Part shown: positions 1,800 through 25,200 of the stretch, in pieces
How positions within the stretch are numbered: the stretch's first letter is position 1
Layout of the letters: each line of letters starts with the position of its first letter
Assembly: GCA_028875225.1 (NCBI GenBank)
Contig: JAPPFB010000004.1
Coordinates: 1 to 64,000 of the forward strand
From: Chloroflexota bacterium
Lineage (GTDB): Bacteria > Chloroflexota > Dehalococcoidia > Bin125
Length of the DNA stretch: 64,000 nucleotides
Direction: 5' to 3'
Notes under the pieces: generated by a model
What the model was told of the DNA's origin: nothing
The model's input: only the letters and a program-made list of their open reading frames with translations
Database searches by the model: none
Made by a program: the position numbers and the translations under genes

Positions 1800-2554
1800 T
1801 AATCGACAGATCGTCGGCATTCGCTCGGCTGCGCGGCGGGGTCGCGACAGCTGCAGTGGCGAAGCGACCGGTTGCACAGAGTCGCGTCAAGGATGTGCTG
1901 ACGGGATGAATCGCGGCGCAACACCCAAGACCCGCAGGTGAACGACGCAGGCTTGGGCTCCGCTCCACCCGGCCGCCCCAGGGAACAAGTTGGCCCCGAC
2001 CTGTTGATCGTGAATCTCCACCAACCGAGCGACGTATACGGCGATCCGAGGGGAGTCGTGCCAACAGATCGGGATGGAGAGCAGCTCTACCGTGAAGAGG
2101 ACGCCGTGAGCGACGTGTGAACGCTGGCGTTGTTGCGGGGGCATCGGCTCGCTGGCGCAGCCTTGCTGCGATGGGGACGAGCATGAAACTCACCCGCCTG
2201 CCGCCTACAAGCTTGGGTGGACCGAGGAGTGGGGCATCGTCATGTTCGCGCCGCCGCGAGGGGCCTGGGACGGCTTGGCCGATGATGCATCGGTGATCGA
2301 ACTCACGCTCAGCGGCGTGAGCGAGCCGGAACTCCAGGGCGACGCCGCCTTCAACGGCGATGGTTATCGGCTGCTCCGGTGTGTGAGCGGCACCGCGTCG
2401 TTGAGCGACTGCGTTCCGGCGTCCTGAAGCATCCACTTCAAGGCGGGCAGCGGTGATTCGGCCACCAGGTCGCCGAGTACTACAGTGTGCGGCATACCGC
2501 ATAGGGCCCGCAGCTATCGAACCCCGCGGGTCGGCCGGTGAACCGAGTTGAGTG
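1800..2554. other. intergenic stretch, no convincing gene
   Basis: There are two short frames, 1938-2120 (with DLLIVNLHQPSDVYGD) and 2242-2427 (with WDGLADDASVIELTLSG). They have some protein-like character but no recognisable domain or ribosome-binding site, and may be gene remnants. The phrase CCCGCAGGTGAACGA recurs here (about 1930) and near 870, hinting that the two stretches share ancestry. I see nothing else that I can support. Confidence 0.3.
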
Positions 2555-3127
2555 ATGCGCCCCGGCAGGATCTGGTTGATCGGCGCGATAGCGTTCTTCG
2601 CTGGGGCTTCTGGGTGCTGCGCGGCGTGTTCGGCGGGTCTGGACGATTCGCTACCCGAGTCGCGCAAGGCGTCGAGACAGTCCGCGCCAGTGGTGGAGCA
2701 AGTCGAGGCGCAGGAGATGGTCGTCGAGCTGGTGGAGCCCCCGTCCTTGGCGAGAACGCTCTCGCCGACTGGAATCCTGCGACGCATGTACCCCTCGCTC
2801 CGTGTCGCCGAAGGGTTCTGCTGGGAAGAGGCCGAGGCCGCCTACGAAGGCGAATCACCGCGGATCGATACGGGACTGGCGCCTGGAGCGGATCCGCCTG
2901 CCGATCTCTTGGCGTTCTTCGAAGGCCAGGGCGAGAGCTATGACGACTACGAGCACCGGTGGTTCAATCGCAATCAGCTGCTGTTCATGCACCAGGAGAT
3001 GTTCGTCACTGAAGGAGGACGACGCGGTCCCAGAGCGGTCGTGACGAGAATTGTGCGCCGGGAGGGCCCCGATGGTCAGCAGTTCTGGGAGGAGTACGAC
3101 GCCGCGGCGATGTACCCGTGCGACTAG
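2555..3127 (+). CDS. putative secreted or lipoprotein, unknown function
   Basis: The product has 190 residues from ATG 2555 (a GTG lies directly before it). The N-terminus is MRPGR followed by a hydrophobic stretch (WLIGAIAFFAGASG) and a run of cysteines (GCCAAC) that could serve as a lipobox. The mature part is acidic: QVEAQEMVVELVEP, then CWEEAEAAYEGE, ADLLAFFEGQGESYDDYEHRWF, and a C-terminal FWEEYDAAAMYPCD. I recognise no family. Consistent acidic composition and a clean signal-like N-terminus support a real exported protein. It stands alone within a remnant-rich stretch. Confidence 0.5.
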   Translation: MRPGRIWLIGAIAFFAGASGCCAACSAGLDDSLPESRKASRQSAPVVEQVEAQEMVVELVEPPSLARTLSPTGILRRMYPSLRVAEGFCWEEAEAAYEGESPRIDTGLAPGADPPADLLAFFEGQGESYDDYEHRWFNRNQLLFMHQEMFVTEGGRRGPRAVVTRIVRREGPDGQQFWEEYDAAAMYPCD

Positions 3128-3608
3128 TGACCGACAACCACAGCTCCGGGACGCCACTGCACCGGTAGAGCACCGTCCGTAATCGCCGTGCGATTCGCGA
3201 AGCAACGCATGGCGGTCGTTGCAGCGACGAGGTCTGCCCAGCGCTGGCTGTACAAGTCAGGATTCAAGCTCGTATCCATTAGCGTGGGCCGCGACCGCTG
3301 GCGGCTATGCGCGGCTCCGGCTGAGGCGGCCGTTCCCGCTCTCCAGGGAACCATTGCCGCTGCGCCCGATCCCGGCTTGCGGTTCGTGACCTCAACGACG
3401 ACGTTCGGGGGCGCATGTTGCCAGGACAATGGCGTCGCTCAAGGTCTGTTTAGGTGCCCAACCAACACGACCCGGCATCGATTCGGCCGCGATCCACTCG
3501 TCGCCCTGAGCACAGCGGGCGACGCAGAACAATGTTGGAAAAGCGCGTTCGCTCGCCTGTTCCTCGTCTCGCCCCGTTTGGCGAGAGGCATGCCCTTCCT
3601 GCTCTTCC
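3128..3608. other. intergenic stretch, no gene seen
   Basis: Frames are open on both strands, but none has convincing protein character, a start site or a recognisable motif. No repeat of note was seen. Confidence 0.35.
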
Positions 3609-3899: not shown

Positions 3900-4389
3900 C
3901 GCATCTCCGCCCGCAGAGCATAGACCGCCTTCAGAACGGGCCAAGGGAGTGTCAACGTTTTCCACGTGAAACCGGGCCGCGACGGGCCTCCGGTGACTTG
4001 CAGCAGGGAGTCAATCTGGAGAGCTCGTCAGCGGCGAAGCCCCGTACGATCAGCGGGTCGGGTGCTCGAACCGTTTCCGATGGGAATGTTGCCCGCGACA
4101 CTCTCGAATTGGCCGGGCAGCCCGATTGCAGTCTTGGGAGCCGGGGGCGTGTACAGGAATCCGGACTCGATTGCTTAAGCAATCTGAGGCCGGATCTCCA
4201 GTCCAGGGCTGGCCTTCGTGGCTCCTATCGGACGTGAACGGCCACGAGTTGGGTGAGGGGGCTCCTTCCCCCGAGATTGCAGTGAGATTGCACTTAGATT
4301 GCAGTTCTGGCCCGCTTGTCCCGGGGGCGGGGTGGGGCGCTGGACAGTTGCCGCATGTGTTCCAGGCAACAGCAACAGGAGGGGAGGGG
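3900..4389. other. non-coding stretch holding repeat module B
   Basis: There is no convincing gene. The second half (4124-4339) is module B, described separately. The first half shows no feature that I can support. Confidence 0.4.
4124..4339. repeat. iteron-like module B (paralogous to 471-660)
   Basis: It shares block 1 GGGGGCGTGTACAGGAA (4143-4159), block 2 GATCTCCAGTCCAGGGCTG (4193-4211; 17 of 19 as in module A) and block 3 GGGGCGGGGTGGGGCG (4324-4339). Its private short repeat is GATTGC: GATTGCAGT at 4124-4132, a perfect palindrome GATTGCTTAAGCAATC at 4169-4184, and three direct copies starting at 4275, 4286 and 4297, an exact 11-bp period. Phased direct copies plus an inverted pair are typical of iteron-type initiator or repressor binding sites. 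CTGGACAGTTG follows directly at 4340-4350, and CTGGACAGTTG also occurs near module A at 296-306. Confidence 0.55.
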
Positions 4390-4551
4390 TTGAGTGTGTC
4401 GCACGGGGCGCAGGCGGGGCCCGGCCGACGACGTGTTGCTGGAGGCGCTGAGGCGGAGGCGTTGGCGACGGAGTTCGTTGCGACTACTCGCGTTGGGATT
4501 GTGGAGTATCTGAAGGGTCGTGGCGGATCGCGACGTTCGAGCGCCGACTAG
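4390..4551 (+). CDS. possible short peptide downstream of module B
   Basis: The frame begins with TTG 4390 or GTG 4396, preceded by the purine tract AGGAGGGGAGGGG, which is a strong ribosome-binding site. It encodes about 51-53 residues, including AEAEALATEFVATTRVGIVEYLKGRGGSRR. The segment ALATEFVATTRVGIVEYLKGR is plausibly helical and basic at its end. I recognise no family. It lies just after the repeat module, where a plasmid-type initiator or regulator would be expected, but it is too short to assign. Confidence 0.35.
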   Translation: MSVSHGAQAGPGRRRVAGGAEAEALATEFVATTRVGIVEYLKGRGGSRRSSAD

Positions 4552-4655
4552 CTAAAGCGAATTGGGCAGACAAGCGAATGACGCCTCGGCAACCGAGCGA
4601 GTTCTATCGACCTTGCCACGATCAAGGAACCAGCGCCGGAGGACTCATCGTCCTA

Positions 4656-7600
4656 TCAGTCGCGACCGAAGATTCGCTCCCTCTTCTCCTCTTTGACGGC
4701 AAAGGACTTGTAACTCTCGAAGGCGATGATGCACGCCTCTAGTACATCGACTGTTGTTTCGCGCGCATTGTTGGACGCGAGGCTCCGCAGCTCCTCCAGA
4801 AGCGCGATTCTTCGCTGCCATTCCGCGCTCTCGTCACCGGACCAACTGAATCCACCAGACATGGTCCATTGGGCGATCTGCTCAGCGGTGCATCCCGCCT
4901 GCCGTGCAAGTTCGGCGCGGCGTAGCCACTGCTCGTCGATGTCGCCCTCAAAGATCGCGCCTCGTAAGCGCTTCAGGTCGCTTCGTTGCAGAAACTGCCG
5001 AGTCAACTCATCGTCTCCGCCGATTAGTCCGCGAACCAGCCGACCGACGCGAACCGAGGAGAGTTGCGGCGGCAAGGCTTCCACCAAATACCGCCTTTGC
5101 TCAGCCGTGAGAGTATCGGCGACATCTTCGATCTCACGAGGGAGCCACTCGGATTCGCCTTGAACCGCAGAGCTCATCCAGATCTCGATCCACTCGGTGC
5201 AGAGTGCCGAATCGCGGCGCAGCACTTGCTCAAGCATCCAACCTTGATGCGAGTCCGAGAATGGCCTATGGCGATAGCCGGCGACACGAGTGCGACACGC
5301 CGCACTGAGAGAATCCGGAAGGAACAATCCATCTCTGTGCGCCGCGCTCGCGCCGTGCAATGCGCTCAGCGCGACCTCCTGTCCCAATCGAGCTTCGGAG
5401 TCTTCCACGATCGCCTGCAGCTCGTGTGTGGCGATCATGCCGATCTCGAAGTAGAACACGACATCGTCCGCTTGGTCGGGCCGAAGAGCTTCGATGGTGA
5501 GGATGCGGACGGCAGTAGAAGCGCCAGACTGGAGACCAAGTCGTGTGCCGATTCGGTAGTACCGGTCGTCGGACAGCATCTGTTCGATCAGGTTCTGGAA
5601 GTCCGATGATGGCTCTGGCGGCAGAGCCGAGGTTGCGGCGTCCACGACCCAGGGATGGCTGTGTCGTTCGACCAAGGCACGCGCGAACCCGACCGGAGAC
5701 TCCACGCGAGCCGCAACTTCGGCCGCGTACATCTGGAGCAGAGGTGGGAGTCCGACCCCGACAGCGACGGTCTCCGCCTCGACGCCGACGATCTCGTCGG
5801 CCAAGTCGGAAGGACCAGCTAGGGCGCGCTGACTCGCGATCAGTCGGATGGCCTCTTTGGCGTCTTCCGTGGGCTCATCGGTAGTGGCGATGCGGTCGTC
5901 CTCTTGCGGGTCGCGGGATGCGTAGAGCGCGTCAATGAACGGCTTGCTCGATGGCTCAACGTCTACGTCGACCCGTGTCGCCATCCTGGACAGCCGTCTC
6001 ATCGCGATCGGTCGAGCATCGTAGATGCTCGCCAGTTGCGGGACGACTCGACGTGCGGTCTCTCGCAACGTCTGTCTCGTCTCGAAGGGGATGGGTCCTC
6101 CATCGCGCATTGTGCCTGGAGCCACCCAGGGGTGGAGCGCATCGAGCACGAGCCTGGGCGGTATCGCCGGATGCTCCCTGAGAAAGTGGAGTAGCTGCTC
6201 CCACACGGATTCAAGTTCACGGAGGAAGTCGAGCGGTTGAACCCCGTAGTAGATCGAAATCCGGTCCTGGTTGACGGGGTCGAGTTCGCTGTCGTCGACC
6301 CTGGGGCTGACAGACGCCATCGCCGCCGCGGCCGCGACTTCCAGGTTCCCGCCCTGCTCAGCCCAGTGCCTCGCCGCCTGCACGACAACCATCCGGTCCG
6401 CCAAGGCAGCATCGCGCGAGGACAGGTGGCTGCGAACGATTGCCAGAGGATGATCCGAATCGGCCTCGCGCCTGGATTTCATGGGCTCGGCTGCGTCGAG
6501 AAGCGCCGTGAGCAGTCTCTCGCTGAGCCCGTGGGTGCGGATAGCGGCCCGCGCGATTCTGGGCAAGTGTCGCGGCGCCTTCACAGCGGCCTGCTCAAAC
6601 TCTTCGAGGCCGAGTTCCGCGTAGACGGCAACGGAATCGGCATCATTCCAGTCGATCAGGCGGGTGATCAAACGGCGATCGAGGGCACATTCCTCTGCGG
6701 CGACGACAGTCAGCGGTATGGCGGCAGCCGCCGGATTCTCAAGCTTCTCAAGAACTCGTTCCAGATCAAGCGATCCGAGACCGCCAAAGAACGCCTCGCG
6801 GACAAGTCCAAATCTCAAGCTCCTCGGCTGCACACGCAACCGGCGGCGATCGAATGGGTGACTCTCAAGGCTGCCGCTCGACCCGGCCTGTCGAATCGCG
6901 TTGGCTACTGTCCGATTGTCAGCACCGAGTGCCTCTGCAACCTGCTCCAGACTCAGGCCATCTTCGTCCATAATCGCAATCACACCGAGCTCGTACAGGA
7001 AGTCGTCAGAGAAGAGACGCTCATTGAACTTCAGTGCCTGTCTGGTCAGCATCCTGCCTGTGACGACATCCCAGCCTCGACCCTCCCGGGACGCACGCGC
7101 CAAGGTGACAGCGAGCCCCACGCGTCCGCGTGCCTGCTTGACGATCTCGGCGACGAGCTGGGGTGGTCCGTAGACATCCATCTTCTGAAGGACGGCGCCA
7201 ATGTCGCTTCGTTCCATCAGAGGGATTTGCTCTGTGCCAGCCCCGGGAAGGCGCTCCGCCAGTTCTTCCGTTCGGTCCTCCCAGCAACAGGCGACGATTG
7301 CAAACGGGTGCGCGATCTCTTGTCGCAGTTGCAGTAGACGGGTGAGCAATTGCAGGCCGGAGTCGAAGTGCGCGTCATCGACAATGACCCGGACGGGCCG
7401 TTCCTCCGCGATCTCGTCGGCCAGCTCGGGGATCGATTGGTCGTGATCGCGGACTAGCCATCCCCAGTCGTGTTCCCTACAAAGCTGTTCAAGCAGGTAG
7501 GACTTCCCTGCGCCCGGCCAACCGAAGACGATCAGGTCGCCGCTCGCACCAATCAGTGCCTGGAGTTCCGCATCTCGACCTATGAGGCCGAGCGAGAGGT

Positions 7601-8087
7601 CGGCATGGACACGCTGAAATCGGCGGGTCAGGGCGCCGACGGGTCCGTGGGTCAGATTCAGCAGTCGCTTGCACCACGCGGGATGTTCCGAGAGCAGCTC
7701 GACGAACGATTCCTGCTCGAGAATCTCCAGCACCTCGACGCCGAACTCCTCCTTGATATCCGTGGGCAGCTCCAGCCGCCTGCGCCCAGACACTGGCCGA
7801 CTTGTGGCCAGGACGACCGCTTGGAGATCGCCTCCTGCATCCTGATAGCTGCTGATGCTGCGGCGCAGGTTGCGGCTAAAGTCCTTCGCCGTCGTCACGA
7901 CGAAGAGGAACGTGGTTCCTTCATGGGTCTCTCCGAGACCGTCCTGTCCGGCGTCATTCGAACCGGGTACCCAGGTCAGCGACGCATATCTAGGGCGCAG
8001 CAGCTCGGTGGCGCAAACTTCGAACAGTTCCGTGTCCAAGCGATCGGCAAGGGCGATCCTGATCCGGTCTCGCACACTGCCATCCAT
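4656..8087 (-). CDS. nuclease-STAND NTPase, probable antiphage defence protein
   Basis: The product has 1143 residues from ATG 8087. Residues about 15-140 look like a restriction-endonuclease fold of the Mrr/REase type: GSNDAGQDG (D49) followed by the strand FLFVVTTAKD (T66-A-K68, in place of the usual E/QxK). The NTPase follows: Walker A GWPGAGKS at 189-196 and Walker B VRVIVDDAH at 232-240, then a winged-helix-like part (LSLEQVAEALGADNRTVANAIRQ). The remaining ~700 residues are helical repeats, as expected of a STAND sensor. Known relatives (Avs/AVAST and other nSTAND proteins) recognise phage proteins, oligomerise and switch on the N-terminal nuclease. That role here is inferred from architecture and from the defence-rich surroundings. 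It is transcribed divergently from the coiled-coil gene at 8184. Confidence 0.78.
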   Translation of the reverse strand: MDGSVRDRIRIALADRLDTELFEVCATELLRPRYASLTWVPGSNDAGQDGLGETHEGTTFLFVVTTAKDFSRNLRRSISSYQDAGGDLQAVVLATSRPVSGRRRLELPTDIKEEFGVEVLEILEQESFVELLSEHPAWCKRLLNLTHGPVGALTRRFQRVHADLSLGLIGRDAELQALIGASGDLIVFGWPGAGKSYLLEQLCREHDWGWLVRDHDQSIPELADEIAEERPVRVIVDDAHFDSGLQLLTRLLQLRQEIAHPFAIVACCWEDRTEELAERLPGAGTEQIPLMERSDIGAVLQKMDVYGPPQLVAEIVKQARGRVGLAVTLARASREGRGWDVVTGRMLTRQALKFNERLFSDDFLYELGVIAIMDEDGLSLEQVAEALGADNRTVANAIRQAGSSGSLESHPFDRRRLRVQPRSLRFGLVREAFFGGLGSLDLERVLEKLENPAAAAIPLTVVAAEECALDRRLITRLIDWNDADSVAVYAELGLEEFEQAAVKAPRHLPRIARAAIRTHGLSERLLTALLDAAEPMKSRREADSDHPLAIVRSHLSSRDAALADRMVVVQAARHWAEQGGNLEVAAAAAMASVSPRVDDSELDPVNQDRISIYYGVQPLDFLRELESVWEQLLHFLREHPAIPPRLVLDALHPWVAPGTMRDGGPIPFETRQTLRETARRVVPQLASIYDARPIAMRRLSRMATRVDVDVEPSSKPFIDALYASRDPQEDDRIATTDEPTEDAKEAIRLIASQRALAGPSDLADEIVGVEAETVAVGVGLPPLLQMYAAEVAARVESPVGFARALVERHSHPWVVDAATSALPPEPSSDFQNLIEQMLSDDRYYRIGTRLGLQSGASTAVRILTIEALRPDQADDVVFYFEIGMIATHELQAIVEDSEARLGQEVALSALHGASAAHRDGLFLPDSLSAACRTRVAGYRHRPFSDSHQGWMLEQVLRRDSALCTEWIEIWMSSAVQGESEWLPREIEDVADTLTAEQRRYLVEALPPQLSSVRVGRLVRGLIGGDDELTRQFLQRSDLKRLRGAIFEGDIDEQWLRRAELARQAGCTAEQIAQWTMSGGFSWSGDESAEWQRRIALLEELRSLASNNARETTVDVLEACIIAFESYKSFAVKEEKRERIFGRD

Positions 8088-8183
8088 ACCTTGAGCCTAC
8101 GGCACCGTCATTCGCCGACTCCACTCGACAACCATCCCCTTGCAGGACCTCCGGCAGCCAGATAGTCGGCCGACCGGCTGGGG

Positions 8184-8962
8184 GTGACCTACCGCACGGC
8201 ATCCAACTGCCTTGAGTCGCGTCACGTCAGCCGGAAGATGCGCGAGGCGCTGGGTAAGCATGTGCGTCAGCAGTCGGAGCAGTCGGAGCGGTCGGAGGAA
8301 CAGGTAGACCAGGCGACCACGACAGAGCCAGAGGGTGCCGCGACGGAGGAGGCGGGGGTGGGGAGGAGGGTCCCGGCCTACAGGAGCCTGGGGAGGCCGT
8401 GCGACGGGAGGTCGAGGCCCTGCGGGCGGAAGTGGCGTCCCTACGCGAACGGGTGGAGGCGGTCGAGGGTCTCGTGTCACAGGGACAAGGAGTCAGGAAC
8501 GGCAACATCGAGGTGGACGGTGTGGATGAAGGCAACGACGAGCCACAGCGTGCAGTGCAGGCGCCCCGCCGTGTCTTCCCTGAACTGATCACCGAGGAGG
8601 CCGAGGAGGCCGAGGAGGCCGAGGAGGCCGAGGAGGGCGAGGAACAGGTCTACGGGGCGGCGGCGGAGACGGTTGTCGAGTGGCGGGACGCCTGGGCCGC
8701 ACGCAAGCGGGCGCGTCTCACCCTGGACTGGCTGCGGGCAGAGCGATGGCGGCTGCAGTTGGAGCTTCGGCTGGTCGGGGAGTTCGGGCTGACCCCGCCC
8801 CCGGCTGACGCGCCCTGGCGGGAGCGGCGACGCGACAGAGAGCTGGACTGGCGCCGGCGGGCACTGTGGCGGCTGCGCTGGCAGATTCCGCTGACCTGGG
8901 TGCTACACAAGCTGCTTCGGGCGATCACGCTTGGGCTGTGGGGGCGGGCGAGCGCGCACTGA
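8184..8962 (+). pseudogene. HTH-like/coiled-coil protein, frameshifted (or frameshift-regulated)
   Basis: From GTG 8184 one frame encodes TYRTASNCLESRHVSRKMREALGKHV, which reads like a DNA-binding helix pair, followed by a Gln/Glu-rich stretch (QQSEQSERSEEQVDQ). From about 8350-8365, a G-rich tract with GGGGG and GGGG runs, the protein-like sequence continues in another frame: EALRAEVASLRERVEAVEGLV, an obvious coiled coil. That frame then carries an EEAEEAEEAEEAEE repeat and a basic helical C-terminus ending in WRLRWQIPLTWVLHKLLRAITLGLWG. The second frame could start alone at GTG 8399. Either a frameshift in a single gene of about 255 residues, or a programmed slip on the G runs, would explain the pattern. 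No family is recognised. Confidence 0.5.
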
Positions 8963-8987
8963 CGGGTAAGTGAGTTGCGGGAGGGAG

Positions 8988-9042
8988 CGGGGCTCAAGGC
9001 CCTCACGGGACCGGTGCGCTATTGCGCCGGGGCTCAAGGCCC
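8988..9042. repeat. 15-bp direct repeat pair
   Basis: CGGGGCTCAAGGCCC occurs at 8988-9002 and 9028-9042, 40 bp apart, just after the coiled-coil gene. Each copy contains the inverted pair GGGC/GCCC. Its purpose is unknown; it may be a transcription-end structure. Confidence 0.4.
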
Positions 9043-9208
9043 GCGCCGGTCGCGGGCTCCCTCCCGAACTCCAGCGTAGCGCGCTTGCAGTCATCTAGGT
9101 CTGCCCAAGGACGAAATGCACACGTCTCGATCGCGGTCTGGAAGACAGGAGGACACTCGTGAAGATGGCTGATCGAGAGGCCGACGCTGGCGGGGTGGCT
9201 GCGAGGCT

Positions 9209-9658
9209 TCAGAGGTTCAAGGACGGCGGCCACATTGCAGTCTCGGCCTCGACCAACAACCCCACAACGTCGTCTTGGCCACTATCGCCGGCCTTGACCA
9301 ACTTCCACAGCCGGTAGAGGTCCGTCGTAGGCACGCAGACGGCGCCGACGATTCTGGCGCTCTCGTCAATGTCTTTGCCCGGGGCAGGTCGATCTGATGG
9401 ATCCATCTCACGCCATGGGTTGGCCAACCAGATCGTCAGGTTCGGCTCTTGTCCCATTTCCGCGCTGTAGCGATCTCGGTGCATCCGAACCTGTTGGGCA
9501 TCGTTGGCCTTGACTCCCTTGGTGTAGCCCTTGACCTCGACGATGGCCTCCCAGTCGGGGTAATCCGCGAGCCGCAGCCGCAGGTCTTCGTGCTTCGCAT
9601 CGTGGGGTTGCTTCGCGTCGTCCATCCGCTCGACCGCGAACCCCATCTCCTCCAGCAT
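9209..9658 (-). CDS. PD-(D/E)xK nuclease-like protein
   Basis: The product has 149 residues from ATG 9658. It shows a restriction-endonuclease-like core: HEDLRLRLADYPDWEAIVEVKGYTKG, with D25 and E41-V-K43 as the likely catalytic set, then an amphipathic helix DAQQVRMHRDRY and a strand NLTIWLANPWRE. Protein-like sequence in the same frame continues 45 codons upstream (ALVLPSLERADDAVRRTIWQDGDELVDAVGEM) to the TAG that ends the membrane-protein gene. The true protein is therefore probably longer, either with its start lost or originally joined to the upstream gene. Its position near the STAND gene suggests a defence or mobile-element role (inference). Confidence 0.55.
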   Translation of the reverse strand: MLEEMGFAVERMDDAKQPHDAKHEDLRLRLADYPDWEAIVEVKGYTKGVKANDAQQVRMHRDRYSAEMGQEPNLTIWLANPWREMDPSDRPAPGKDIDESARIVGAVCVPTTDLYRLWKLVKAGDSGQDDVVGLLVEAETAMWPPSLNL

Positions 9659-9790
9659 CTCGCCGACCGCGTCGACCAGCTCATCGCCGTCCTGCCAGAT
9701 CGTGCGGCGGACAGCGTCGTCGGCGCGTTCCAGGGAGGGGAGTACCAGGGCAAGTTCTACATCGCTGCGGCGAAAGCTAGTCCGCTCCTC

Positions 9791-16323: not shown

Positions 16324-18433
16324 ATGAACGTCCAGACGCACGGCGAACTGGCGAACTTCATCTGGAGCATCTGCAACCTGCTGCGGGGGCCATACAAGCG
16401 GAATGAGTACCGCAAGGTCATCCTGCCACTCACCGTGCTCCGACGGTTCGACTGCATCCTGGCGGACACCAAAGACGATGTACTTGCGGCAGCCGAGAGA
16501 ACCAAGGACCAGACCCAGACCATGCAGGACATGGCGCTGAAGAGTGCCTCGAAGCGCGGGTTCTACAACACATCGAGGCTCGACTTTCAGAGACTTCTCG
16601 ACGATCCGAATCAGATCGCGCAGAACCTGAACGCCTACATCGCCGAGTTCTCGGAAGACGTGCGAACGGTCATAGAACGCTTCGGCTTTGGCGAGCAGAT
16701 CGCGAGGATGGACGAGAAGAATCTGCTCTTCCAGGTCATCCAGGCCTTCGCCAACGTCGACCTCTCTCCAGAGCGCGTCGACAACGTGCAGATGGGATAC
16801 GTGTTCGAGGAACTGATCCGGGTCGGCGCCGAGCAGGCGAACGAGGAGGCGGGAGAGCACTTCACCCCACGCGAAGTGATCCGCCTCATGGTCAGCCTGC
16901 TCTTATCGGACGAACCGGACCTGGGCCGCAGCCACGTGGTCAAGCGCATCTACGACCCAGCTTGTGGCACCGGCGGCATGCTGTCCGTGGCGGAGGAGTT
17001 CCTGCGCGAACACAACCTGGAGTCGTTGCCGGTGCTCTTCGGACAGGACCACAACGACGAGGCGTGGGCGGTCTGCAAGTCCGACATGCTGATCAAGGGC
17101 GGGAACGCCGAGAACATCATTCTTGGCGACACCTTCAGAGCCGACCACTACCAGTTCCACCCTGACGGGACCAAATGGACCTTCGACTACATGCTCGCCA
17201 ACCCGCCTTTCGGCGTGGAGTGGAAGCAGCAAGAGCGGGATATCAGGCAGGAGGCCGACACGCTCGGCTTCGACGGCCGCTTCGGCGCCGGACTGCCGCG
17301 CATCAATGACGGCTCTCTGCTGTTCCTGCAGCACATGCTCTCGAAGATGCAGCCTGTCGACGACGGCGCCGGCGGCAGCCGGATCGCGATTGTGTTCAAC
17401 GGCTCGCCCCTGTTCACAGGTGACGCCGGCAGCGGCGAGAGCAACATCCGGCGCTGGATCATCGAGAACGACTGGCTCGAAACGTTCGTCGCGCTGCCCG
17501 ACCAGCTCTTCTACAACACCGGAATCTCGACCTACATCTGGATTCTGACCAGCCGCAAAGAGGAACGCCGGCGGGGCAAGGTGCAACTGATCGACGGGCG
17601 CCAGTTCTTCGTCAAGATGCGCAAGAGCCTGGGCAACAAGCGTAACGAGCTGTCGCGCGAACAGATCTCGGACCTGACCCGCATTCACGGCAACTTCGAG
17701 GACGGCGAGACCCGCGACCTGCCTTACGAAGACCCGGTCACGCACGAGACCCGATTGCGGCCGCGAGTGGTCAGCAAGGTCTTTGCGAACGAGGAACTCG
17801 GCTACCAGAAGGTGACGGTCGAGCGGCCGTTGCGGCTGAACTTCGCCGCGACCGCTGAGCGCATTGCCCGGCTGGAGGACGTCAAGGCGTTCCAGAATCT
17901 TGCGAAGAGTCGCAAGCGAGTTGGCGCAGCGCATGACGCCGATGTCGCGGCGGGCTGGGCCCGCCAGCGTGAGCTTCGAGAGCTGCTCCACGCGCTGCAT
18001 GAGAATACCGACGGCGCCTCCTATGACGACCGCGAGGTGTTCGTTTCGACGCTGGGTGACGTACTCAAGGCGCGCAAGTCCAAACCTCTCGGCGGCGGAG
18101 CGCAAGGCGGTGCTCGCGGCGTTGGGAGAGCGCGACCCCGACGCCGAAGTCTGTCTCGACCGTCGCGGCAATCTCGAGCCGGATCCCGAGCTGCGCGACA
18201 CCGAGAATGTGCCACTTGGCGAGGAGATCGACGATTACATGAAGCGCGAGGTTCTGCCTCACGTGCCCGACGCCTGGGTCGACCACAGCAAGACGAAGAT
18301 CGGCTACGAGATCCCGCTCAACCGACACTTCTACGTCTACGAGCCGCCACGCCCGCTGGAAGAGATCGAGGAGGACATTCAGTCGTTGGAGACGGAAATC
18401 GTCGGCCTGCTGGGCGAGATTGGGAGGAGCTGA
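16324..18433 (+). CDS. hsdM: Type I restriction-modification DNA methyltransferase subunit, apparent frameshift near the C-terminus
   Basis: ATG 16324 is preceded by GGAG. An N-terminal HsdM helical domain (residues 5-150) is followed by FTPREV (180-185), the SAM-binding motif DPACGTGG (211-218) and the catalytic NPPF (293-296), so this is an N6-adenine methyltransferase. Near 18065-18090 the protein-like sequence changes frame. The starting frame reads ARKSKPLGGGAQGG and becomes arginine-rich nonsense. The +1 frame continues NLSAAERKAVLAALGERDPDAEV and ends with the typical NRHFYVYEPPRPLEEIEEDI to TGA 18431-18433. Without a shift, the product would run to 18462 with a wrong tail. The KAP NTPase starts 3 nt later, then hsdS. 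Sequence error, real inactivation and slippage are all possible. Confidence 0.85.
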
Positions 18434-18436
18434 CTG

Positions 18437-19867
18437 ATGTTAGACGAAGCCGACGAGGTTGAGAAGGGTCTAACGAGGCCGGCGCTCAAGGTGGTTGAGC
18501 CTGAGATAGATCCGAACGATATCTGGTTCGAGGACAAGCTCGAACGAGAGAGAATCGCGGAGCGCCTGACGACCATTGTCCAGGACGAGCAAGCGCCGTT
18601 CGTGATCAGCCTGGACGGGCGATGGGGGACAGGCAAGACCTTCCTGCTCAAGCGCTGGCGGGCGCAATTGGAAGATGATGAGTTTCAGGCCATCTACTTC
18701 AATGCCTGGGAGGACGATTTCTGTGATGACCCGCTGCTGGCGATCATTGGCCAGCTCTCCGAGCATTTCAGCGATGGCAAGTTCAAGGAGTTGGCTCTGA
18801 AGATCGCCGACGTTGCCCTAGGGCTGCTTACGAAGTCGTTGATCGGTGAGGCAGTCAAGCTGGAGGACGTGAAACCGCAGGGCATACTGCGCGATTACCA
18901 CGAACAACGGAAGATGAAGGAGGAAGTGAAGGGACAGTTGACGCAACTGGCCGCCGAGGTGCGGAGCGAAACCGGTCACCCACTGATCTTCATCGTCGAC
19001 GAGTTGGACCGCTGCCGTCCGACATTCGCGATTGAGTTGCTGGAGCGGGTCAAACACATCTTCGACGTTCCCAACATCGTCTTCGTCTTCGGGATCAACC
19101 GAGCCGAACTGGTGAAGTCTCTGCAATCGGTCTTCGGCGAGATCGACGCTGACGAATACCTTCGGCGCTTCTTCGACATGCCTTTCATCCTGCCGAACCC
19201 TGATTCGGCAAGGTTCTGCAGATTCCTCGTAGGAATGTATGATCTCGACTCGTTCTTCGATGACATGAGCAAAACTGCTAACAACGACATTCATATCAAG
19301 GATTTCAGAAGCTTGTCTGAGACGCTACCGCGGATTCTGGGACGGATGGGGCTCTCACTCCGTGACATGGATTACTGCGTGAGACTGGTTGCTCTAGCAG
19401 CAAAAGGATTGAAGGAGCGCCACACCATGTTTCCGGCGGTGCTTGCCCTCCTTGTCGCAGTAAAGATCACCGACCCCGATCTTTACCAGCGGTTCGTTCT
19501 CGGCATGGCTCGGGGTGCCGAGATCATTGATCACATGAACGAGCGTCACCAGCTTTACGGAGGAGACGAGCCCGACAGAAACAGGCGAGACCTCGAGTGG
19601 GCGGAGGCGGGAATCTATTTCGCCGACAACAGGAGAACTACATGGGTGCAACTTGGATTGCTGAGTGAAGGCAAACAGTTGACTCGACCAGAACTACTAG
19701 CCGAAGCCACGCGCGGATTGAGCGCTGATGACGAGTCAGACAAGAGGAGGATCGATAACCTGCTGGGGGGGATGAACTGGTTTTCTCAACAGGGAGTGAA
19801 CTACCAAGGGAGCGTCGGTTACCTAGCCGAGCTGATCGACCTCTACGACAACAGCTCGAGCCGGTAG
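18437..19867 (+). CDS. KAP-family P-loop NTPase within the Type I RM operon
   Basis: The product has 476 residues, starting 3 nt after the hsdM stop. Walker A is GRWGTGKT (61-68), the KAP signature FNAWEDD is at 88-94 and the Walker B region IFIVDELDRCRP is at 184-195. VFVFGINRAELV and RRFFDMPFILP follow, all typical of KAP NTPases. The hydrophobic piece between Walker A and B (KIADVALGLLTKSLIG) is weak for a membrane insert. KAP NTPases are recurrent in defence loci, for example RloA-like proteins in Type I RM operons and various phage-resistance systems. hsdS starts 2 nt after its stop, so it is cotranscribed with the RM genes and probably modulates or backs up the system (inference). Confidence 0.85.
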   Translation: MLDEADEVEKGLTRPALKVVEPEIDPNDIWFEDKLERERIAERLTTIVQDEQAPFVISLDGRWGTGKTFLLKRWRAQLEDDEFQAIYFNAWEDDFCDDPLLAIIGQLSEHFSDGKFKELALKIADVALGLLTKSLIGEAVKLEDVKPQGILRDYHEQRKMKEEVKGQLTQLAAEVRSETGHPLIFIVDELDRCRPTFAIELLERVKHIFDVPNIVFVFGINRAELVKSLQSVFGEIDADEYLRRFFDMPFILPNPDSARFCRFLVGMYDLDSFFDDMSKTANNDIHIKDFRSLSETLPRILGRMGLSLRDMDYCVRLVALAAKGLKERHTMFPAVLALLVAVKITDPDLYQRFVLGMARGAEIIDHMNERHQLYGGDEPDRNRRDLEWAEAGIYFADNRRTTWVQLGLLSEGKQLTRPELLAEATRGLSADDESDKRRIDNLLGGMNWFSQQGVNYQGSVGYLAELIDLYDNSSSR

Positions 19868-19869
19868 CG

Positions 19870-21234
19870 ATGCAACCGTACCCCACCTACTGCGATCCTG
19901 GTGTCGAGTGGCTCGGTGAAGTGCCGGGGCACTGGGATGTGGGTAGGTTGAAGTACGTCACATCCATCAATGACGACGCACTCTCCGATAGCGAAGAGCC
20001 CCTCAGGCCAATGTCATACGTTGACATCAGTTCGGTCGATTCAACTCGCGGCATTACCCACATCGAGGAGATGGTCTTTGAGGACGCTCCGTCCCGAGCC
20101 AGGAGGCTGGTTCGCGACGGCGACACCATCGTCTCGACCGTCAGAACTTATCTACGAGCAATTGCGCCGATCACCGATCCACCGCCCACGATGGTCGTTT
20201 CTACCGGCTTCGCGGTCATTCGACCTCGAGACCTCGATCCTAGTTTCTCGGCTTGGGCGCTCAGAGGGCACGGATTCATCGAGGAAGTCGTCGCTCGCTC
20301 AGTCGGCGTCAGCTACCCGGCTATCAATGCGTCGGAGATTGGCAACATCCCGATTGCTGTCCCACCCCTCGACGAGCAGCGCGACATCGCCGCCTTCCTC
20401 GACCGGGAGACGGAGCGGATTGACTCGCTGATTGCGAAGAAGCTGCTGCTGATTGAGCGGCTGCAGGAGTATCGGACGGCGCTGATCACGCGCACGGTGA
20501 CGCGCGGTCTCCCACCAGAGGCCGCCCGCGCCGCCGGCCTCGACCCATCGCCCCGCCTCAAGCCCTCAGGCGTGGGGTGGTTAGGGGATGTCCCGGAACA
20601 TTGGTCTACACCCAAGCTAAGCACGCGATACGACATCGCCTTGGGAAAGATGCTGGACGAGTCCAGGATCACCGGAGAGCATCTCGTTTCCTATCTGCGC
20701 AACGTTGATGTGCAGTGGGACAAGATCAACCTCCTTGACCTCCCTGAGATGGATTTTCGGCCCAGAGAGTTCGGGCGGTACACGGTTCGCGAAGGCGATC
20801 TCTTGGTGTGCGAGGGAGGAGAGCCAGGTCGCTCAGCAATAGTCCCTCCAGGGGTGAGCGCAATCGGCTTTCAGAAGGCGCTGCATCGACTGCGTCCTCT
20901 CAACGCGGAAGAGTGTCCGAGGTACCTCTTCTACACGCTCTCATTCGCTGCTTCCTATGGCGTGTTTGAGGCACGCGGCAATCCCAACACCATTCTTCAT
21001 TTGACAGGTGACATGCTCCGGGAGTATCGGTTTCCGCGTCCGCCCAGGGATGAGCAGCTAGCCATCGCCGACTTCCTTGATCGCGAGGTGGGTCGCATCA
21101 ATGACCTTTCAGAGCGAATCAAGGCTGCAATAGATCGCCTCCAGGAGTACCGCACTGCCCTCATCGCGGCCGCAGTGACGGGCAAGATCGACGTTCGAGA
21201 CGAGGTTTCGGTCACCGCAGATCGCGCCGAATAG
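19870..21234 (+). CDS. hsdS: Type I restriction-modification specificity subunit
   Basis: The product has 454 residues with the usual two-repeat HsdS plan. TRD1 opens with GVEWLGEVPGHWDVGRLKYV, and the first conserved helix follows IPIAVPPLDEQRDIAAFLDRE and ends in ERLQEYRTALI. TRD2 opens with GVGWLGDVPEHWSTPKL, and the second helix follows YRFPRPPRDEQLAIADFLDRE, ending in DRLQEYRTALIAAAVTGKIDV. The two helices pack as a coiled coil to bind the two HsdM subunits, and each TRD reads one half of a bipartite site. The 3' end overlaps the convergent toxin-like gene (21212) by 23 bp. Confidence 0.93.
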   Translation: MQPYPTYCDPGVEWLGEVPGHWDVGRLKYVTSINDDALSDSEEPLRPMSYVDISSVDSTRGITHIEEMVFEDAPSRARRLVRDGDTIVSTVRTYLRAIAPITDPPPTMVVSTGFAVIRPRDLDPSFSAWALRGHGFIEEVVARSVGVSYPAINASEIGNIPIAVPPLDEQRDIAAFLDRETERIDSLIAKKLLLIERLQEYRTALITRTVTRGLPPEAARAAGLDPSPRLKPSGVGWLGDVPEHWSTPKLSTRYDIALGKMLDESRITGEHLVSYLRNVDVQWDKINLLDLPEMDFRPREFGRYTVREGDLLVCEGGEPGRSAIVPPGVSAIGFQKALHRLRPLNAEECPRYLFYTLSFAASYGVFEARGNPNTILHLTGDMLREYRFPRPPRDEQLAIADFLDREVGRINDLSERIKAAIDRLQEYRTALIAAAVTGKIDVRDEVSVTADRAE

Positions 21235-21586
21235 CGGCCTTGACCGGTTCCCGGGCCTTAGAGATCAAGGCTCCGAGTTGAATTCGTTCTAGTAACGGAG
21301 CGGAAACCGGCTCGTGTGCCTCATAGCGTCCACTTGCCACGTGCTCACGGATCAGGCTCAGATCGGGAAGCGCCGCTCGCTGATAGAAGATGCACGAGTC
21401 ATGCGTCGGATAGGGGTGTTCGCCCGGACCAATGACAAGGCAATCGGCGCCGCAATGAGATCGCCGGACTGGGTCATGGGTTGTGAAGTTGACGGCGGCA
21501 ACCCTGCCGTCGTCGCCAGCTTCGGACACGATGATCCAGAGATGGCCCTTCTGGTCGAGGCCGAAGAACGTGTCGCCAATGTTCAC
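21212..21586 (-). CDS. putative toxin partner of the Panacea antitoxin (PemK-like barrel?)
   Basis: The product has 124 residues, with a start codon overlapping the stop of the upstream Panacea gene (ATGA). MNIGDTFFGLDQKGHLWIIVSEAGDDGRVAAVNFTTHD resembles the beta-barrel opening of MazF/PemK-type or related SH3-like proteins (GD...HLWIVIS...VNLTT). HPYPTHDSCIFYQRAAL follows, then a helical tail. Panacea-domain antitoxins pair with many unrelated toxins and are usually encoded first, as here. Toxicity and ribonuclease activity are inference. The gene runs against hsdS and overlaps its 3' end by 23 bp, so the pair is nested tightly within the RM locus. Confidence 0.6.
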   Translation of the reverse strand: MNIGDTFFGLDQKGHLWIIVSEAGDDGRVAAVNFTTHDPVRRSHCGADCLVIGPGEHPYPTHDSCIFYQRAALPDLSLIREHVASGRYEAHEPVSAPLLERIQLGALISKAREPVKAAIRRDLR

Positions 21587-22137
21587 CCGGCGCGCACCAG
21601 CTGGGTGTGCATCTGGTAGATGGCCTCGGCGTTATCCGTCACCAACTCGATCGCATACTCGCTATAGCCGGCGTAGCGCAGGATGTCGGCTGGGTCGATC
21701 GGGATGGGGGATTTCTCCGGGTCACGCCATTCAGGCAGCGCCTGGGTCTGACTGACCACCTGCGAGGCGCGCAATTTGCCGTAGGTCTCGTACGTGTCGT
21801 TTAGCAGCTCCACGCTTGACTCGGAGAGCTGCTCCCATTCGACTGGCCCGCAGAGGTGGGCGACGAAGTGCTCGCGCTTGATGTAACGATGCCAGATCGA
21901 TTCTTCGCGCGGCTGCTCTTGCAAAATCAGTTCAAGCACCTGGCAGGGCGTCGGTCCATGCTTCATTGAGGCGTAGTGATCGTCGGTGATCGGCACTTCC
22001 GTCTCGATCAGAGAGGCGCGGTCGGCAAGGTAGAGCAACTTGACCAGCTTGAGGTAGTCCATGGAACCCCCGGCGCGGTCGAGCAGAATCGACGCAGCCT
22101 GCGCAGCGCGGCGCTCGTCGAAGGCGAATCTCATCAT
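21583..22137 (-). CDS. Panacea-domain (SocA-like, DUF4065) antitoxin
   Basis: The product has about 184 residues from ATG 22137 (ATG ATG; an upstream TTG is less likely). Core features are SILLDRAGGSMDYLKLVKLLYLADRASLIET, then ITDDHYASMKHGPTPCQVLELI, the hallmark order of the Panacea/DUF4065 fold (KLLYLAD and MKHGP). Panacea proteins neutralise diverse toxins in toxin-antitoxin pairs and also occur in phage defence. It is divergent from hsdR, with about 117 bp between the two starts, and coupled to the downstream toxin-like gene by ATGA. It could guard the RM locus against loss. Confidence 0.85.
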   Translation of the reverse strand: MMRFAFDERRAAQAASILLDRAGGSMDYLKLVKLLYLADRASLIETEVPITDDHYASMKHGPTPCQVLELILQEQPREESIWHRYIKREHFVAHLCGPVEWEQLSESSVELLNDTYETYGKLRASQVVSQTQALPEWRDPEKSPIPIDPADILRYAGYSEYAIELVTDNAEAIYQMHTQLVRAG

Positions 22138-22254
22138 GGCGGTCACTCTATCCCTTAGCGGCAAGTGTCGCGCGGGCGATCCAGGTCGTCAAGACAGCGA
22201 GCCGCTCAGCGGTATCGTGTTCACAGTTCGATTGTGCCAATAGAGACGGTAGTC

Positions 22255-25200
22255 ATGAGCACCCAGACCAAGGAAAAGGCGTTCGAGGACACCGTTGAGT
22301 CGATGCTGCTGAACGTCGGCTGGATCAAGGGTGTGCTCGAGGACTGGGATGTCGAGCGGGCGCTGTTCGCGGAACCCGCCATCGCCTTCATGCGCGACAC
22401 GCAGCCCGAGCAGTGGAACAGGGCCGCACAACTGCTCGGGGACGATCTCGAGTCGCGGATCGTCGAAGTCCTGCTCAAGGAGCTCGACAACAAGGGATCG
22501 CTGCACGTTCTGCGGCATGGATTCAGGTTCCACGGCCAGACTTTCCATCTTGCCTACTTCAAGCCGGCGCACGGGCTCAACGACGAGGCTTTGAACCGAT
22601 TCGAGCGCAATGAACTCTCGGTCACTCGCCAGGCGCTCTGCCATCCGAATCAGGGCCACACGATCGACCTGCTGTTCGCACTCAACGGCATCCCGGTCGC
22701 GACCTGTGAGCTCAAGAATCCAATGACCAATCAGACGTGGAAGAGCGCCATTCGCCAGTACCAGCAGGACCGCGACCCCAACGCCCTGCTGTTCCAATTC
22801 AAGAAGCGCGCCCTCGTCCACTTCGCGGCCGACACGGACGAAGTCCACATGAGCACTCGGCTGCAGAGAGAGAAGACACGCTTCCTCCCGTTCAATCGAG
22901 GCAGCAATCCGGGCGGCATCGAGTGCGGCGCCGGCAATCCGCCGCATCCATCCGGATACCGCACGACGTACTTCTGGCAAGAGGTCCTGGAGCGCGAGCG
23001 CTTCCTCGACATCATCGGGTCCTACATCTTCACCGAGACGCGTGAAGAGAAGGTTGAGGACGAGAAAGGCGTGCGAACGGTCAAGAGCGAGTCGGTGATC
23101 TTCCCGCGCTTCCACCAGCTCGATTCCGTAAACCGGCTTGTCGGCACGGCGAGAGTCGAAGGCGCGGGCCACAACTACCTGATCCAGCACTCGGCCGGCA
23201 GCGGCAAGACGAACAGCATCTCCTGGCTCTCGCACCGACTGGCGAGTCTGCACACCGAGGCGGACGTGAAGGTCTTTGATTGCGTAATCGTAATCACCGA
23301 CCGTCGCGTGCTCGACCGTCAGCTCCAGGACGCGATCTACCAGATCGAACACGCCCAGGGCGTGGTCAAGCCAATCGACCAGGACTCGCGACAACTCGCC
23401 GAGGCGCTCGTCGACGGCACCAAGATCGTGATCACGACGTTGCAGAAGTTTCCCTTCGTCATGAGGGGCCTCTTAGTTGTGGCAGGCGCCGAATCGCCAG
23501 ATGCTCCGTCCGAGTCCGACCTTGAGCGACAGAGTGAATGGCGGAAAGAGATCGCGCAGCGCCGGTACGCAGTGATTGTCGACGAGGCGCACTCCAGTCA
23601 GTCGGGCGAGTCCGCCCGCGAGATGAAGGGTGTTCTCGGCTCCCGCGCGCAAGAAGCGCTTGAGGCCAGCGAGGACGACGAGGATGTGCTCAACGCGGTC
23701 GTTGAGTCACGCGGGCCACAGCCCAATCTCTCGTTCTTCGCCTTCACAGCTACTCCAAAGGGCAAGACGCTGGAGCTGTTCGGTCGCAAAGCCGCGTCGG
23801 AACTGAATCCGGTCCCATTCCACCTCTACAGCATGCGCCAGGCGATTGAGGAAGGATTCATCCTCGATGTCCTGCAGCATTACATCGACTACGACGCCTA
23901 CTTCAAGCTGGTCAAGGAGGCTGAGGACGATCCGGAGTTGCCTAAGCGCCGCACAGCCACGGCGATAGCCAAGTTCGCGCACCTGCACGAGCACAACATC
24001 GCGCAGAAGACAGAAGTGATCGTCGAGCACTTCCGCAACCACGTGCGCTTCCTCATGGGCGGCCGGGCCAAAGCGATGGTGGTCACGTCGTCGCGTCTGC
24101 ACGCCGTGCGCTACATGAAGGCCTTCAAGAAGTACATCGCTGAAAAGGAATACGACGATGTGCGCCCGCTGGTGGCCTTCAGCGGGACGGTTCACGATCC
24201 GGACACGGGCGAGGACTTCACTGAGCCCGGCATGAACACTGATGCCGTGACCGGCAAACCGATCAGCGAGTCCGCGCTGCCTGCACGATTCGATTCGTCC
24301 GACTACAACGTTCTGCTCGTGGCAGAGAAGTACCAGACCGGTTTCGATCAGCCGCTGCTCCAGGCGATGTACGTCGATAAGCGCCTTGACGGTGTCCAAG
24401 CCGTGCAGACGCTCTCCCGTCTCAACCGCACCGCAGCCGGTAAGCAGCCGCCGTTCGTCCTCGATTTCGTCAACGATCCCGAAGACATTCGCAGCGCGTT
24501 CAAGCCCTACTTCGACCAGACTCAGCTGCTGGAAGAGTCCGATCCTTACCGCTTGGAAGAGCTAAAGCACGAGCTCGACCAGATGCAGGTCTACCACTGG
24601 AGCGAGGTCGAGGCGTTCGCTCAGGCTTTCTTCAGCGCTGGCCCCGGAGGTGTGAAGAGCGTTCATGCCCAGCTGGTGAGTCTGCTGCAGCCGACCGTCG
24701 AACGATTCCGCGAGTTGGAAGAAGAAAGACAGCAGGAGTTTCGCGATCGTCTGCAAGCGTTCGTGAATCTCTACGCCTTCCTGAGCCAGATCATCCCCTA
24801 CGGCGACCATGATCACGAACGCCTCTCCGCATTCGGACGCGCCCTCCTCCCACTCGTGCGCCCAATCCGCGAGGACATCATCGAAATCGGAGACGATGTT
24901 GAGCTTGAGTTCTACCGGCTCACGCGCCAGTCGTCCAGATCTATCTCGATTGCCGAGGGATCCCCCGAATACGTCACCAGTCCTACTGAGGTCGGCACCG
25001 CCAATCCGGAGGAGGAACGGGCGCCGCTCTCGGAGATCATCGAGAACCTCAACGATCGATTCGGTACGGAGTTCACCGAAGCGGATCGGCTGTTCTTCGA
25101 GCAGATCAAAGAGAGCGCCATCGAGAACGAGACGATTCGCCAGACGGCCCAGGCAAACTCGCTTGACAACTTCAAGCTCGTCATCAGCCCCCGGATTCAA

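What the first reader, a model, noticed from the sequence alone, without database searches (positions are those of the whole stretch)
4656..8087. nSTAND protein with a variant PD-(D/E)xK centre
The REase-like N-terminus keeps D49 and K68 but has T66 where E or Q is expected (VVTTAK). Either an atypical active nuclease or an inactivated one is fused to an intact P-loop (GWPGAGKS) and Walker B (VIVDDAH).
Basis: partly seen in the sequence, partly recalled or inferred. Interest (0 to 1): 0.58.

Follow-up and report, generated by a model that had tools for sequence, protein, structure and literature searches.

The report
Phage sensor with altered nuclease domain
This is a bacterial immune-sensor-like protein whose front 'weapon' domain has the fold of a DNA-cutting enzyme but, across its whole family, lacks two of the usual cutting residues and keeps a different invariant set instead, so it is either an unusual enzyme or a non-cutting adaptor.

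Summary
The gene is real, on the minus strand (4656-8087, 1143 aa). P-loop and Walker B are intact. The N-terminal ~145 residues have a predicted PD-(D/E)xK fold, closest to the Avs4 nuclease domain; the whole model's best Foldseek hits are Avs4 and Avs3.

K68 is not conserved: it is E in a 79%-identical homologue and K/E/R/A/Q among ten full-architecture homologues. With bridging relatives, canonical Q-x-K falls on V63 and T65.

Three groups emerge: canonical Mrr-like (Q-x-K, 9 rows); a group with Ser/Thr at 65 (9 of 10) and Lys on the next helix at 73 (10 of 10); and the window clade (10 rows), with V/I63, invariant D45, D49, T65, N73 and no conserved Lys/Arg column. So the centre is changed clade-wide.

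One relative of the same STAND and C-terminal region carries SEFIR instead, and the gene lies ~8 kb from a defence island. Best reading: an Avs-like immune sensor with a non-canonical REase-fold effector; whether it cuts is untested. Inactive REase domains in NACHT proteins are already known (Pfam NA-iREase1), so this is a new variant of a known kind.

The parts
4656..8087 (-). nSTAND gene, 1143 aa: REase-like domain, STAND NTPase, all-alpha C-terminal region
   Evidence: homologues
7653..8087 (-). REase-like (PD-(D/E)xK fold) N-terminal domain, residues 1-145
   Evidence: AlphaFold2 pLDDT 76.6, pTM 0.71; Avs4 nuclease domain Z 8.7
8019..8021 (-). E23, helix A (E in 9 of 10, Q in L032)
7953..7955 (-). 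D45, invariant in all three groups (29 of 29 rows)
7941..7943 (-). D49, invariant in all three groups (29 of 29 rows)
7899..7901 (-). V63, at the position of canonical Gln (V/I in the clade)
7893..7895 (-). T65, at the position of canonical Lys; invariant in the clade
7884..7886 (-).
7869..7871 (-). N73 on helix B, invariant in the clade; Lys in group 2
7053..7595 (-). STAND NTPase core, residues 165-345
   Evidence: AAA+/STAND chains, best rows Z about 13
7500..7523 (-). P-loop GWPGAGKS
   Evidence: G189, P191, G194, K195 invariant in 10 of 10
7368..7388 (-). Walker B VIVDDAH
   Evidence: D237, D238, H240 invariant in 10 of 10
4656..6827 (-). C-terminal all-alpha region (residues 421-1143, small beta hairpin 596-616), presumed sensor
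   Evidence: conserved full length in relatives

Best explanation
A single-gene, Avs-like immune sensor. The C-terminal helical region presumably recognises an invader protein (inferred). The STAND NTPase then binds ATP and oligomerises (inferred from intact motifs and from Avs proteins). Clustering switches on the N-terminal REase-fold domain. That domain keeps its acidic residues (E23, D45, D49) but across the whole clade has lost canonical Gln and Lys, having V/I63, T65 and N73 instead. I think it more likely than not still an effector in its own right, using a non-canonical, Lys-free site on nucleic acid or nucleotides, rather than a decayed nuclease. Shown here: architecture, motifs, fold prediction, clade-wide pattern, effector exchange with SEFIR in one relative. 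Inferred: defence function, trigger, oligomerisation, catalysis. My split: immune STAND sensor about 0.85; N-domain is the effector about 0.7; catalytic by a non-canonical site about 0.45-0.5.
For: REase fold and Avs4/Avs3 as best structural matches. Ten full-architecture homologues at 22-57% pairwise identity, apart from one pair at 78%, keep D45, G47, D49, G50, T65, N73, L74 without exception. These were among 14 invariant columns of 145; three prespecified site positions (49, 65, 73) all being invariant has chance 7e-4 if columns were interchangeable. Group 2 has Lys at 73 in 10 of 10 and S/T at 65 in 9 of 10. The acidic residues are retained, which a simply discarded nuclease need not do. 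In L020 the same STAND and C-terminal region follow a SEFIR domain (bSEFIR 3.5e-53), so the N-terminal slot is an exchangeable effector slot. Purifying selection on the domain, dN/dS 0.28. A type I R-M system and a Cap4-NACHT gene lie at 16.3-30.3 kb.
Against: By the established chemistry of PD-(D/E)xK enzymes, loss of both E/Q and K normally means no cutting. No column of residues 1-145 is K/R in all ten rows. T65 and N73 could be structural. Inactive REase domains linked to NACHT proteins are known (Pfam NA-iREase1, name seen). The register V63/T65 depends on the bridging group 2: without it canonical Q-x-K aligns to gaps, and hhalign puts Gln opposite T65. No coordinates were available, so clustering of D49, T65 and N73 in space was not measured. 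SEFIR exchange rests on 1 of 11 homologues. Defence function is untested.
Confidence: 0.5

Rival explanations
1. The N-domain is a catalytically dead REase fold used as an oligomerisation, DNA-binding or recruiting module; killing is done by another protein or by the assembled STAND itself.
For: V/I63 and T65 replace Q and K, and the helix Lys of group 2 is Asn in 10 of 10. No conserved basic residue in the domain. Precedents: RecC nuclease-like domain (PMC1185551, abstract seen); a degenerate HamA (dHamA) domain proposed to drive protease oligomerisation in a Hachiman system (PMC12799240, passages seen); Pfam NA-iREase1.
Against: Acidic residues D45 and D49 stay invariant. T65 and N73 are invariant rather than drifting. 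I saw no conserved partner nuclease gene beside the L019 homologue; the one conserved neighbour seen is a 189-191 aa protein of unknown function.
Confidence: 0.37
2. A conventional nuclease in which K68 is the catalytic Lys and T66 stands in for E/Q.
For: K68 is present in 4 of 10 homologues (window, L022, L027, L034) and Arg in two.
Against: Glu, Ala or Gln in the other four, including Glu in the 79%-identical homologue; entropy rank 106 of 145; strand 3 of the model ends at 65, so 66 and 68 lie outside it.
Confidence: 0.04
3. The gene is not defence but a regulator: a STAND transcription regulator-like protein whose N-domain binds DNA.
For: Three relatives (L027, L030, L031) carry an in-frame HTH domain before the REase domain. 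STAND regulators such as MalT exist (recalled).
Against: No HTH in the window protein's N-terminus; best structural matches are Avs4 and Avs3; SEFIR replaces the domain in L020; defence-island setting.
Confidence: 0.08

Closest known systems
Avs4 / Avs3 (AVAST) STAND defence proteins
   Same: Order nuclease-fold domain, STAND NTPase, long all-alpha C-terminus. Best Foldseek matches of the full model: 8dgf_B Avs4 2.9e-8, 8dgc_A Avs3 1.8e-6. The N-domain's best VIA match is Avs4, Z 8.7 over 138 residues.
   Different: No Avs model of PADLOC matches at E<=1. Canonical Q and K lost. Sequence not recognisably related to a solved Avs chain.
Mrr_cat restriction endonuclease family (PF04471)
   Same: Helix-A FE, GxxDxGxD, same order of secondary structure; sub-threshold best match for 6 of 10 clade members.
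   Different: The window protein itself has no match at E<=10; Q-x-K absent.
NA-iREase1, NACHT-associated inactive restriction endonuclease (PF22722)
   Same: A REase-fold domain without its catalytic residues associated with a STAND/NACHT NTPase; the same kind of thing by its name.
   Different: None of the ten clade domains matches the model at E<=10; this clade keeps D45 and D49 and has an invariant T65/N73. How NA-iREase1 lost its site was not examined.
bSEFIR / SEFIR-STAND proteins
   Same: L020 has the same STAND and C-terminal region (27% identity) behind a SEFIR domain.
   Different: The effector domain is unrelated to REase.

Membership tests
PD-(D/E)xK (REase-fold) superfamily | alpha-beta-beta-beta-alpha-beta core | tested here: met
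   Predicted order H19-30, E38-41, E48-53, E59-65, H70-83, E90-95, H101-115, E118-123; PD-(D/E)xK enzymes head the VIA list, though only two rows pass Z 8.
PD-(D/E)xK (REase-fold) superfamily | Asp on strand 2 plus (E/Q)xK on strand 3 (active members) | tested here: not met
   D49 met in 10 of 10; (E/Q)xK absent in every register tried.
STAND NTPase | intact Walker A and Walker B | tested here: met
   G189, P191, G194, K195 and D237, D238, H240 invariant in 10 of 10.
STAND NTPase | match to a curated STAND/NACHT profile | tested here: inconclusive
   Window: AAA_16 7.3e-5, below cut-off; L022: nSTAND3 8.8e-5, below cut-off; fold match to AAA+/STAND chains with best rows Z about 13.
Avs (AVAST types 1-5) | match to Avs profile models | tested here: not met
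   No Avs model among PADLOC matches at E<=1. So: works like Avs is plausible, is an Avs type is not claimed.
Avs (AVAST types 1-5) | tripartite N-effector, STAND, C-terminal repeats | tested here: met
   tripartite definition from PMC12931631 passages.
Avs (AVAST types 1-5) | senses a phage protein and protects cells | not testable with these tools
   needs plaque assays
NA-iREase1 (PF22722) | match to the Pfam model | tested here: not met
   0 of 10 clade domains at E<=10.
Mrr_cat (PF04471) | match above the gathering score | tested here: not met
   Best clade score 18.2 bits against a cut-off of 21; window none.

The most novel reading that the evidence does not exclude
A Lys-free REase-fold effector with an altered, conserved Asp-Thr-Asn centre (D49, T65, N73, with E23 and D45), reached in two steps: Lys moved from strand 3 to helix B (group 2), then was replaced by Asn (window clade). 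The assembled STAND protein would use it for a reaction other than ordinary Lys-assisted DNA cleavage.
Probability: 0.3. Interest if true: 0.72.

Novelty: new variant of a known kind. Interest (0 to 1): 0.47.

Why it matters
If the site is active, it adds a Lys-free variant to a very large nuclease superfamily and shows that motif-based filters would discard a working immune effector as dead. If it is inactive but kept under constraint, it is a clean case for asking what a dead nuclease domain does in an immune receptor. Either way the three-group series gives named residues (D49, T65, N73 against Lys at 73) with which to ask it.

Tried and rejected
Rejected: T66-x-K68 as the centre. A link to ubiquitin: profile search of solved structures gave E down to 3e-9 only by summing weak repeats of poly-ubiquitin, no single stretch significant. 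The mad1 match at 1051-1075 covers 25 residues and was not followed. The Smc3 match (E 0.005) is taken as a chance coiled/helical match.

Led nowhere: single-protein scan of genome contigs (none); plasmids and phages by tblastn with the window protein (none) and plasmids with L022 (none); viral contigs with two alignments (none). SEFIR in the own genome: none, but the 14 controls did not ring either, so it is no evidence of absence. PADLOC Aga_REase-TIR family in 247 Acidobacteriota genomes mostly matched the TIR part. The tree of the STAND part leaves the SEFIR row unresolved: only 3 of 8 inner branches are well supported, so whether SEFIR or REase came first is not shown.

Rows dropped before the three-group count: L084 (60-aa fragment), L085 (reads QAK, canonical-like), L091 (reads QCV), L092 (no GxxDxGxD frame found by my filter), L057 (short frame, QCL), L017 and L099 (copies of L016 and L005). 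Rows were sorted into groups 1 and 2 by eye from their letters, so group identity is not independent of the motif; the position-73 result in group 2 is therefore a description of those ten rows.

Not settled: spatial closeness of D49, T65, N73 (no coordinates could be read). Papers not held and so only recalled: Gao et al. 2022 on Avs and the 2012 PD-(D/E)XK survey. Paper searches that showed no description of this domain in what they listed; most subscription papers are not in that library, so I do not claim it is unpublished.

Full report
What is there. The ORF at 4656-8087 is real and lies on the minus strand: 1143 aa, ATG start. The host is a member of Chloroflexota by inference: genomes that the tool calls same phylum or same class hold proteins identical to ones in records titled Chloroflexi.

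Relatives. The gene is rare and patchy. Among 100 close genomes, 3 match at E<=0.001: the own genome, one with a full STAND match (G026), one with only a paralogous N-domain (G004). Among 400 Chloroflexota genomes, 6 match, of which 2 (G000, G252) are full-length and the rest short P-loop matches. Among 347 Acidobacteriota genomes, 17 match; 6 genomes hold near full-length genes (G470 two of them), 3 hold C-terminal pieces, 8 only short matches. The nearest homologue, in a Bryobacterales MAG (L019), is 79% identical along the STAND and C-terminal part. Window 4618-8282 is 82% identical in DNA to L019, and three further blocks match in a different order. That suggests exchange between phyla, though mis-binning of a MAG is not excluded. 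No plasmid or phage record matched.

Fold. AlphaFold2 on residues 1-164 with four rows gave pLDDT 76.6 and pTM 0.71, with the order expected of a REase fold; D49 is on the second strand (48-53), T65 ends the third (59-65), N73 is in the next helix (70-83). Second-look alignment puts Avs4's nuclease domain first (Z 8.7, 138 residues), then LlaBIII 8.3, EcoT38I, AspBHI, FokI, MspJI; only two rows pass Z 8, and unrelated folds (RNA polymerase Rpb5-like chains) score nearly 7, so this is good but not overwhelming. Foldseek on the same model ranks Avs4 only 8th and 11th, E about 0.02. The full model (pLDDT 72.2, pTM 0.45) has Avs4 (2.9e-8) and Avs3 (1.8e-6) as its two best Foldseek matches, and an AVAST5 filament at rank 14; the global TM-scores are low (0.14-0.21), as expected for a poorly packed large model. 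The STAND core matches AAA+/STAND chains, best rows Z about 13, including plant NRC3 and Apaf-1. Sequence searches of solved structures found no true relative.

The centre. I aligned ten full-architecture homologues (window, L019, L021, L022, L027, L030, L031, L032, L033, L034), 22-57% identical apart from one pair at 78%. Fourteen of 145 columns are invariant, among them D45, G47, D49, G50, T65, N73, L74; the same 14 stay invariant without L019. Position 66 is T in 8, S and I in the others. Position 68 is K,E,R,K,K,A,R,K,E,Q, rank 106 of 145. No column is K/R in all ten; only position 75 is K/R in eight. E23 is E in nine, Q in L032.

Three groups. A profile of these rows plus two paralogues reached both canonical Mrr-like proteins and an intermediate set. 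I tabulated 9 canonical rows, 10 intermediate rows (one in the window's own genome, G000:C18; five from plasmids of Rhodococcus, Streptomyces and haloarchaea) and the 10 clade rows. Canonical: Q at 63 and K at 65, 9 of 9. Intermediate: S/T at 65 in 9 of 10 (R in L100), K at 73 in 10 of 10. Clade: V/I at 63, T at 65 and N at 73, 10 of 10. D45 and D49 are invariant in all 29. Three canonical rows tested (L083, L093, L098) are Mrr_cat above cut-off. Four of four MAFFT modes on all 29 rows give Q to V63, K to T65, helix Lys to N73. Canonical plus clade rows alone put Q-x-K against gaps in four of four. Intermediate plus clade rows alone give Lys to N73 in four of four. hhalign confirms N73 opposite Lys in group 2 (E 4e-17) and, against canonical rows, puts Gln opposite T65 with Lys in a gap. 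So the exact register at strand 3 depends on the bridge, but in none of these alignments does K68 meet the canonical Lys, and in no register does the clade keep (E/Q)xK. Groups 1 and 2 were sorted by eye from their letters, which weakens the evolutionary order to a suggestion.

Effector slot. L020 (Chloroflexi MAG) has the same STAND and C-terminal region at 27% identity behind a SEFIR domain (SEFIR 3.6e-14, bSEFIR 3.5e-53). Three Acidobacteriota relatives put an HTH domain in frame before the REase domain. This mirrors the tripartite STAND plan with exchangeable N-terminal effectors described for Avs proteins (PMC12931631, passages) and other conflict systems (PMC7159879 and PMC8195603, passages).

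Setting. At 16324-25407 lies a type I R-M system with a KAP NTPase (PDC-S20) between M and S genes, and at 25898-30259 a 1453-aa protein with a Cap4-like nuclease end and a NACHT region. From about 33 kb on, the genes I scanned are metabolic. So the gene sits some 8 kb from a defence island rather than within a proven operon.

How it works, and how sure. Sensor, STAND switch and N-terminal effector are inferred from architecture and from Avs. The domain is under purifying selection (dN/dS 0.28). Retained acids plus an invariant T65 and N73 argue for a kept site; loss of Q and K argues against ordinary cleavage. I lean slightly to a non-canonical active effector over a dead adaptor, but the two are close, and only an assay can decide.

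Compared with what is known. It works like Avs3/Avs4, but no Avs profile matches it. Inactive REase domains with NACHT proteins are already a named Pfam kind, NA-iREase1 (name seen), which does not match this clade. Hence a new variant of a known kind, not a new kind.

Noticed in passing
window 16324-25407 (+): Type I R-M system (HsdM, HsdS, HsdR) with a KAP-family NTPase (PADLOC PDC-S20) encoded between M and S.
   Followed up: partly
window 25898-30259 (+): 1453-aa protein with a Cap4-like nuclease N-terminus and a NACHT region; PADLOC Avs1b matches its NTPase part (3.6e-18).
   Followed up: no
window 9209-9658 (-): 149-aa ORF with VEVKGY looks like the truncated C-terminal part of a 451-aa protein that is intact in L019 15800-17155; the latter has a weak Mrr_cat match.
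   Followed up: partly
window 2199-3130, 4142-4450, 8164-9727 against L019: Blocks 74-76% identical to a Bryobacterales MAG contig but in a different order: shared, rearranged island or mis-binned contig.
   Followed up: partly
window 2552-3127 (+): 191-aa protein of unknown function whose homologue (L019 11321-11890) also lies next to, and convergent with, the STAND gene.
   Followed up: no
G000:C18, L005 5575-8634 (-): 1019-aa protein of the same genome with a group-2 REase-like N-domain (Lys at 73) and no Pfam or PADLOC match for the whole protein.
   Followed up: partly
L102 3950-5068: Group-2 REase-like protein on a Halomarina plasmid between a KwaB-like gene and BREX genes.
   Followed up: no
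L027, L030, L031 N-termini: HTH_3/HTH_31 domain in frame before the REase-like domain, as if the sensor carried its own DNA-binding or regulatory part.
   Followed up: partly
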